This document shows positions 30,872 through 32,477 of a DNA stretch of 64,000 nt, in pieces. A program made the translations under genes and the position numbers. The stretch is from Halosegnis rubeus (GTDB lineage: Archaea > Halobacteriota > Halobacteria > Halobacteriales > Haloarculaceae): assembly GCF_009184545.1 (NCBI RefSeq), contig NZ_QJOW01000001.1:558001-622000 (forward strand), read 5' to 3'. The number at the start of each line of letters is the position of its first letter. Position 1 is the stretch's first letter. Below the pieces are notes generated by a model that worked only from the letters and a program-made list of their open reading frames with translations, was not told where the DNA came from and searched no databases.

Positions 30872-30996
30872 ACCCGTGTTCGTTCGCCCGGCGGCTTGTC
30901 GGTTTCGTCGTCGCACTCTCCCGCCGTTGGCAGCGTCCCCGCGCTGTTCCCGCCACTCGTCGGACGGGACTTTACGCTTACGACGGTTGTCAACTA

Positions 30997-31045
30997 CCCC
31001 ACCCTACTTCGCTCAGTCTGACGACTTCGCTCGTTGAGGGTGGGG
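30997..31045 (-). ncRNA. Right-end hairpin, likely 3' scaffold of an omega/sot guide RNA
   Basis: On the minus strand CCCCACCCT (31045-31037) pairs perfectly with AGGGTGGGG (31005-30997) around a 31-nt loop that includes the tnpB stop. IS1341-type elements of Halobacterium express sense-overlapping RNAs from this position, and TnpB omega RNAs have their guide directly beyond the right end; the candidate guide here starts near 30990. Confidence 0.55.
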
Positions 31046-32269
31046 CTTGTCCGTGAACTCGGTCTCGAACCCGTCCGGGTGGGCAGTAAATCCGCCACTC
31101 GGCGTCACCGTTCCAGACTTCAGGGCAAGCTGACTGTTGCCCGTCCGCCGAGACGACTGTTGGCCCCGACGGACGTACCGCATACCGATGTTTTTCGCCG
31201 CATTGTAGTCCGCGTTCGCTTCCGACTCGCACTTCTGACAGCAGAAATCGTTTCGATTCGGGCGATTCTCGTCGGCTGTGAAGCCACACTCGGCGCACCG
31301 TTTCGACGTGTACGCCGACCCGACTTGTTTCACCGAAACGCCGACCGCTTCGGCTTTGTACTCGACTTGTTCGTACAGCATTCGGAATGCCCACTTGTGG
31401 CCCCACGACGCACCCGTGCGGTCGCGGATGTCGGTCAAATCCTCGAACGCTATTACGTCGCACTCGTATCGGAGTGCTTCGTCTACGATGGCGTTCGACG
31501 CTTGGTGGAGTACGTCGCGGATATACCGGAGTTCGCGGCCACTCGACCGTTCGAGTGTTCGGTGGGCGCTTCGCGTCCCGGTCTGTTGGAGTCCGGCGCG
31601 TACCTTCTCGAACTCGCGGAGGTCGTGGGTTACCTCTCGTCCGCTAACGAAGGAGGCGGTGCTGGTGACGGCGAGGTTTTCGATACCGAGGTCAACCCCG
31701 AGGACCGTTCCGTCCTCGGCGGTGTTGCGCTCGGTATCGGTCTTGTGACGGCGGAAGCCGATGTGCAAGAAGTAGTTGCCATCACGGGCAGTGAGCGTGC
31801 TTTCCGTGACGCTCCACTCATCTGAGTCGAGGTACTGCCGTTGGTAGCCATCGTCGGCATCGGGAAGGGCAAGCGAACACCGGACCCGACTCTCCGTGGT
31901 GGAGAGAGAAACTGTGTCGTCATCGAACAGCGTCATTGTCCGGGTGTCGTACTTCACCGTGGGTGCGGTGAAAGTCGGCTTGCTGATCTTCTTGCCGTTG
32001 GACCGGCGTTCGAGACAGCCGGTGATAGCTTGTGCGGCTTGGTGGGTGGCGAGAATCGCGTGCTGACTCCCGAGGCCAGTTTGCTCACGCACGTCGTCGT
32101 AGGCGAGGGGCTGTACGTCGCTCTTGGCGTTGCACTTGCCCCACGCCATGTCGGTGGCGAGCTGGCAACCACGCTTCCACTCAGAGATGGTTTCCTCAAG
32201 CAACTCGCGTTGCTTACCATCTACTGAGAGTCGGGTGATTGCTGTCCGACGCACGTAGTCGTCTGCCAC
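31013..32269 (-). CDS. tnpB: TnpB, RNA-guided endonuclease-type protein
   Basis: A 418-residue TnpB of the IS200/IS605 superfamily, ancestor-type of Cas12; characterised relatives cut DNA under guidance of an RNA from the element end. The RuvC triad is intact: D193 (GVDLGIENLA), E276 (IAFEDLTD) and D354 (NADYNAAKN). The zinc ribbon has C325/C328 and C344/C347, with an additional C343. Length is normal, with no frameshift. Translation starts at GTG 29 bp from a strong TATA box, so the gene looks expressed. The last codons lie inside the right-end hairpin. Confidence 0.93.
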   Translation of the reverse strand: MADDYVRRTAITRLSVDGKQRELLEETISEWKRGCQLATDMAWGKCNAKSDVQPLAYDDVREQTGLGSQHAILATHQAAQAITGCLERRSNGKKISKPTFTAPTVKYDTRTMTLFDDDTVSLSTTESRVRCSLALPDADDGYQRQYLDSDEWSVTESTLTARDGNYFLHIGFRRHKTDTERNTAEDGTVLGVDLGIENLAVTSTASFVSGREVTHDLREFEKVRAGLQQTGTRSAHRTLERSSGRELRYIRDVLHQASNAIVDEALRYECDVIAFEDLTDIRDRTGASWGHKWAFRMLYEQVEYKAEAVGVSVKQVGSAYTSKRCAECGFTADENRPNRNDFCCQKCESEANADYNAAKNIGMRYVRRGQQSSRRTGNSQLALKSGTVTPSGGFTAHPDGFETEFTDKPHPQRAKSSD

Positions 32270-32293
32270 AGTTTCAATGTAGTACTATGGCTA

Positions 32294-32303
32294 CTTATAT
32301 ATT
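32294..32303 (-). promoter_or_regulatory. Strong TATA box of tnpB
   Basis: AATATATAAG on the minus strand, centred 29 bp before the GTG start at 32269, giving a leaderless transcript; the TATA is AT-rich in a GC-rich setting. Confidence 0.7.
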
Positions 32304-32477
32304 GGTTTCTTTGACCTATCCGAACGCGCTCCTCCCCTCCCTACTCGCTCCCTACGGTCGCTCCTTGAGGAAGGGGACTCCGCGCTACCGCTCCAGTTGA
32401 AAACGTCGAGATGAGTCAACAGGAGGACGGAACTACCGAATCCGAACGGCCAAACGGCCCCCGCCCGACACGCCGGT

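What the first reader, a model, noticed from the sequence alone, without database searches (positions are those of the whole stretch)
30990..32400. Intact solo TnpB element with a likely guide RNA at its 3' end
Seen: full RuvC triad (D193, E276, D354), zinc ribbon, strong TATA box 29 bp before a GTG start, no TnpA, and a perfect 9-bp hairpin (31037-31045 with 30997-31005) that spans the tnpB stop and lies just inside the right end. Known: TnpB nucleases use an omega RNA from this position, and Halobacterium IS1341 elements express sense-overlapping RNAs there. Inference: this copy encodes an active RNA-guided nuclease, with the guide starting near 30990 on the minus strand and matching the local flank; without TnpA it may now be maintained for a host purpose.
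Basis: partly seen in the sequence, partly recalled or inferred. Interest (0 to 1): 0.72.

Follow-up and report, generated by a model that had tools for sequence, protein, structure and literature searches.

The report
Mobile haloarchaeal TnpB element with omega-RNA
This is an intact, ordinary copy of a widespread haloarchaeal "jumping" element that encodes a small RNA-guided DNA-cutting enzyme and its guide RNA; here its exact ends, landing motif and RNA fold are worked out, and it looks like a mobile element rather than a gene tamed by its host.

Summary
tnpB (31013-32269, minus) is an intact 418-aa TnpB with D193/E276/D354 and a four-Cys ribbon, a TATA box ~28 bp before a conserved GTG, and no TnpA nearby. 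A scan found 187 relatives across Halobacteria, many 85-94% identical. Fifty distinct insertion sites and two exact empty sites of relatives fix the ends: the element is 32396-30989 (1408 bp), inserted after 5'-TTCAA, with no target duplication. The predicted guide starts at 30988 (AACCGTCGTAAGCGTA). This RNA has no Rfam match. tnpB is under purifying selection (dN/dS ~0.11). The family is solo in 78 of 79 loci; the genome has two TnpA genes elsewhere. Domestication is not supported: the insert is absent from compared relatives, the family is mobile, and the guide matches only its own flank. Best reading: a new copy of a known kind (solo IS200/IS605, IS1341-type) that probably makes an active RNP protecting its own site. 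A lead: in two cases the same site is occupied in different flanking backgrounds, suggesting homing-like spread. Activity is inferred, not shown.

The parts
30989..32396 (-). whole mobile element (1408 bp), left end 5'-CTGGAGCGGTAGCGCGG, right end ...GGGGTAGTTGAC-3'
   Evidence: homology breaks at both ends in 50 sites; two exact empty sites of relatives fix the junction as TCAA|right flank; no exact empty site was found for this copy
31013..32269 (-). tnpB, 418 aa, RuvC D193/E276/D354, zinc ribbon C325/C328/C344/C347
32397..32401 (-). target / predicted TAM 5'-TTCAA-3' (host DNA, outside the element)
   Evidence: 50 sites: each base of TCAA in 49-50 of 50, T at -5 in 38/50; genomic in empty sites
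32331..32378 (-). left-end subterminal palindrome (CCCCTTCCT...AGGGAGGGG)
   Evidence: alignment; fold (RNA z -2.3; DNA fold not better than shuffles)
32291..32303 (-). TATA box ~28 bp upstream of the GTG; leaderless promoter (inferred)
30989..31174 (-). omega-RNA scaffold: P1 31174-31163/31154-31143, P2 31142-31137/31128-31123, P4 31118-31112/31056-31049, small hairpin 31096-31092/31086-31082, right-end hairpin 31046-31037/31005-30996
   Evidence: 98.1% of cells paired, 13 pairs with both-side changes, 0/500 shuffles; coordinates
31129..31134 (-). P2 loop GTCAGC, pairs with right-end GTTGAC (30994-30989) as a pseudoknot
   Evidence: 100% paired in 50 sequences; partner changes in own-genome subfamilies: GTTTAC with GTAGAC, TTCAC with GTGGG (pairing read by hand)
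30973..30988 (-). predicted 16-nt guide AACCGTCGTAAGCGTA (local flank)
   Evidence: right-end boundary; 16-nt length taken from ISDra2 (PMC8612924); only exact own-genome match

Best explanation
An intact, non-autonomous IS200/IS605 (IS1341-type) element, inserted since the split from its sequenced relatives. Shown: an intact TnpB whose family is under purifying selection; an omega-RNA with covarying helices and a loop/right-end pseudoknot; insertion 3' of TTCAA without target duplication. Inferred: tnpB mRNA is processed into an omega-RNA ending in ~16 nt of right flank; TnpB-omegaRNA cuts the empty allele (TTCAA + guide) on sister, polyploid or incoming copies; recombination then copies the element back in. 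Also inferred: movement to new sites used a Y1 TnpA supplied in trans.
For: TnpB family models (NF040570 151.8 bits, cut-off 100; PF07282; PF01385); PDB sequence hits to Cas12f and TnpB; triad and Cys invariant; dN/dS median 0.115; 50 distinct TTCAA sites; exact empty sites in two genes; RNA covariation 0/500 shuffles; cross-subfamily pseudoknot; 78 of 79 relatives have no TnpA match within 3 kb; two TnpA in own genome, one in an element with similar ends; the same family jumped at least twice in this genome (C11/C12). Mechanism by homology: ISDra2 (PMC8612924), SisTnpB1 (PMC10640517), IS gene drive (PMC11870625), haloarchaeal omegaRNAs (PMC12558985).
Against: No RNA data or cleavage assay for this copy. 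No exact empty site for the window: in relative G001 a further ~41 bp (left) and ~70 bp (right) are also missing. TnpA presence in Halorubrum does not correlate significantly with element presence (19/21 vs 22/30, Fisher p 0.17), and two carriers show no detectable Y1, so mobilisation in trans is unproven. The AlphaFold model of the RuvC half is poor.
Confidence: 0.85

Rival explanations
1. Domesticated TnpB kept by the host (defence or regulation) with its guide fixed on a useful target.
For: Intact gene under purifying selection; no tnpA in cis.
Against: Absent at this locus in the genus relatives whose cofD locus could be compared; family at 50 unrelated sites; guide matches only its own flank in the genome; viral 16-mer matches extend little further and look like background; purifying selection is shared by the whole mobile family.
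Confidence: 0.04
2. Inactive relic: gene intact only because the insertion is recent, with no working omega-RNA or nuclease.
For: No expression data; no cognate TnpA known; many Haloquadratum tnpB copies are disrupted (PMC3119063).
Against: All catalytic residues, all RNA helices, pseudoknot, promoter and both ends are intact in this copy.
Confidence: 0.08
3. The right-end hairpin matters only as a DNA palindrome for TnpA, not as guide-RNA structure.
For: IS200/IS605 ends need subterminal palindromes; the right-end hairpin also forms in DNA.
Against: Covariation also in P1, P2 and P4 inside the coding sequence, and a pseudoknot between P2 loop and right end, which a DNA end alone does not need; haloarchaeal omegaRNAs share this plan (PMC12558985).
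Confidence: 0.03

Closest known systems
Haloarchaeal IS1341-type (solo tnpB) IS200/IS605 elements, e.g. ISNph5-22, ISHwa17-29, and PATEs (PMC3119063)
   Same: tnpB alone, near-terminal palindromes, no target duplication, short target oligonucleotide, many copies unlinked to tnpA
   Different: This family was not matched to a named ISfinder entry here; its TTCAA target and omega-RNA fold are derived here
H. salinarum sotRNA / omega-RNAs (sot0042 RF02656, RF02657; PMC12558985)
   Same: RNA overlapping the tnpB 3' end, right-end hairpin, P2-loop/TEM pseudoknot
   Different: No Rfam match even at relaxed threshold, while RF02656 matches 16 other places in this genome
ISDra2 TnpB (PMC8612924) and SisTnpB1 (PMC10640517)
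   Same: RuvC triad, guide from right flank, TAM equals the target next to the left end
   Different: Predicted TAM TTCAA here (TTGAT in ISDra2; TTTAA in SisTnpB1); no biochemistry here
Cas12f
   Same: Best structural and sequence hits
   Different: Transposon ends, TTCAA target and omega-RNA at the right end in place of a crRNA system; no CRISPR array was looked for beyond the flanks read here

Membership tests
TnpB RNA-guided nuclease (OMEGA) | TnpB domain set over curated cut-offs | tested here: met
   NF040570, PF07282, PF01385 above cut-off
TnpB RNA-guided nuclease (OMEGA) | RuvC D-E-D triad and zinc ribbon | tested here: met
   D193/E276/D354, C325/328/344/347 invariant
TnpB RNA-guided nuclease (OMEGA) | structured omega-RNA at the 3' end of tnpB ending at the right end | tested here: met
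   covariation and pseudoknot; transcription itself not tested
TnpB RNA-guided nuclease (OMEGA) | RNA-guided, TAM-dependent cleavage | not testable with these tools
   needs expression and a cleavage or interference assay
IS200/IS605 family | insertion 3' of a short fixed motif, no target duplication | tested here: met
   TTCAA at 50 sites and two exact empty sites of relatives
IS200/IS605 family | subterminal palindromes, no terminal inverted repeats | tested here: met
   right-end and left-end palindromes conserved across relatives
IS200/IS605 family | Y1 (HUH) TnpA in the element (autonomous members) | tested here: not met
   no Y1 gene nearby; filed only in the solo-tnpB (IS1341-type) subgroup, which lacks it by definition
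Domesticated TnpB | orthologous insertion conserved across species, guide to a non-self target | tested here: not met
   absent in compared relatives; self-flank guide only in the genome
Rfam sot omega-RNA families | match to RF02656/RF02657 | tested here: not met
   no match at E up to 5

The most novel reading that the evidence does not exclude
This TnpA-less family spreads between haloarchaeal lineages by RNA-guided homing into allelic sites: TnpB cuts the empty allele and recombination copies in the element. Two natural cases fit. In an aldo-keto reductase gene three Halorubrum lineages carry 95-97.5% identical elements at the same base, while the left-flank tree rejects the carriers as one clade (AU p 0.0001; right flank p 0.40). 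In Natronococcus the element is 98.5% identical at the same site, but identity falls to ~82% at its right end, and tnpB dS is 0.07 against 0.50 in a left-flank gene. Ordinary recombination is not excluded.
Probability: 0.25. Interest if true: 0.7.

Novelty: new member of a known kind. Interest (0 to 1): 0.38.

Why it matters
The family gives a clean haloarchaeal TnpB system with a derived TAM (TTCAA), exact guide start and covariation-backed omega-RNA, ready for tests in genetically tractable, polyploid haloarchaea. It also sharpens an old puzzle: how tnpB-only elements, common in haloarchaea and often unlinked to tnpA, keep moving. The same-site cases make RNA-guided homing testable as part of the answer.

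Tried and rejected
Rfam at both thresholds: no match for this RNA. An empty site for the window copy in 146 family genomes: none; only the 44-nt left part matched relatives. Viral 16-mer matches to TAM+guide or guide (16 and 7 contigs): identity stops shortly after the 16 nt, so treated as background. Phage records have only distant TnpBs; viral contigs gave no close relative. TnpA/element association in 51 Halorubrum genomes: not significant. Junction TCAAC|flank was rejected in favour of TCAA|flank by the AKR and halocyanin-like empty sites. AlphaFold model: N-terminal half good, RuvC half poor (mean pLDDT 64.7), so Foldseek ranks are only supportive. The organism of the window was not identified.

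Full report
Observation. tnpB runs 32269-31013 on the minus strand, 418 aa from a GTG. They are invariant among the 40 aligned family sequences. The hairpin is exact, but a perfect 9-bp inverted repeat is not rare here (50 in 64 kb), so its weight comes from conservation.

Family and ends. A scan of genome contigs found 187 relatives; 79 loci were kept, many 85-94% identical. Plasmids hold more. Aligning the left sides of 50 loci shows unrelated flanks up to TCAAC, then a shared left end. At 50 distinct sites TCAA is near-invariant with T at -5 in 38, and little signal further out. At the right end, homology in 13 own-genome copies and in the relatives stops after GTTGAC or a subfamily variant.

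Empty sites. L058 and L099 sit in an aldo-keto reductase gene; most of 52 Halorubrum genomes carry it uninterrupted as ...GATCAACAGCTACG, aligned without a gap. L040/L042 sit in a halocyanin-like gene; nine genomes match the joined flanks ...GAGTTCAA|ATTGAACGG end to end. Both place the insertion after TCAA and make C the first base of the element, with no target duplication. For the window this gives an element 32396-30989, target TTCAA 32401-32397, guide from 30988. The window's own site has no exact empty allele. Relative G001 (cofD 94% identical) has the HD-domain gene and cofD adjacent, without the element and without ~41 bp left and ~70 bp right of it. So the insertion is not ancestral in the genus, but this exact junction rests on the family.

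RNA. In a 50-sequence alignment RNAalifold finds helices through the last ~190 nt of the element. Counting a named structure with the pseudoknot gives 98.1% paired cells, 13 pairs with changes on both sides and 0/500 shuffles reaching it; slid versions pair 39-49%. The structure was partly derived from these sequences, so the slid control leans its way. The P2 loop GTCARC pairs with the right-end GTTGAC in all 50. In other own-genome subfamilies the end is GTTTAC with a GTAGAC loop, or TTCAC with a GTGGG loop (pairings read by hand). This is the plan described for H. salinarum omega-RNAs (PMC12558985). Rfam has no match for this RNA, although sot0042 matches 16 other places in the same genome.

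Selection and mobility. dN/dS has a median of 0.115, rising to 0.32 in the last 48 codons, where the RNA overlaps. No TnpA match lies within 3 kb in 78 of 79 loci; L085 has a 35% match. The host has two Y1 genes, one in an element with similar ends. In Halorubrum 19 of 21 carriers and 22 of 30 non-carriers have a Y1 gene, p 0.17. At the C11 and C12 contig ends two copies of a relative, identical over 127 nt, have different right flanks, so the family has moved recently in this genome.

Mechanism. By homology with ISDra2 and SisTnpB1, TnpB-omegaRNA should cut DNA with TTCAA followed by the guide sequence, which is the re-formed or unoccupied site. In a polyploid archaeon with strong gene conversion (PMC11276520, abstract only) that would favour fixation and retention, as reported for IS200/605 in plasmids (PMC11870625). 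None of this is shown for this copy.

Homing lead. Three Halorubrum lineages carry the element at the same base of the AKR gene. Elements differ by 2.5-4.6%. The tree of 800 nt of the gene rejects the carriers as one clade (AU p 0.002); the left 300 nt rejects it strongly (p 0.0001), the right 500 nt does not (p 0.40). That is the mosaic expected if the element entered the L058 lineage with its right flank. In Natronococcus L055/L077 the element is 98.5% identical, the right flank drops to ~82% at once, and tnpB dS is 0.07 against 0.50 in a left-flank gene. The cases were noticed after the fact, Halobacteria recombine freely (PMC3988388, abstract only), and ordinary recombination or an insertion hotspot could also explain them.

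Verdict. Sound observation; a new member of a known kind; domestication not supported.

Noticed in passing
L058, L099, L185 (AKR gene); L055, L077 (Natronococcus): Same insertion base occupied in different flanking backgrounds with near-identical elements, suggesting allelic (homing-like) spread.
   Followed up: partly
L073, L074, L076, L078, L101 (tnpB 3' end); L043, L082, L067 (right-end region); L069, L072 (left end): Palindromic inserts (about 50 nt in the first group) inside relatives' omega-RNA or end regions, reminiscent of the SMR-A elements that target IS605 palindromes (PMC3119063).
   Followed up: no
G000 C11:105393-105518 and C12:2-128 (L030, L029): Two right ends identical over 127 nt with different flanks at contig ends: an unassembled, recently moved relative of this element.
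   Followed up: partly
window 30918-30988 and 32396-32437: DNA flanking the element is also absent from the closest relative's cofD/HD intergenic region; its origin is unknown and it matches nothing else in 146 family genomes.
   Followed up: partly
L085 (Candidatus Methanohalarchaeum): The only relative with a possible TnpA nearby (35% identity, about 0.9 kb upstream).
   Followed up: no
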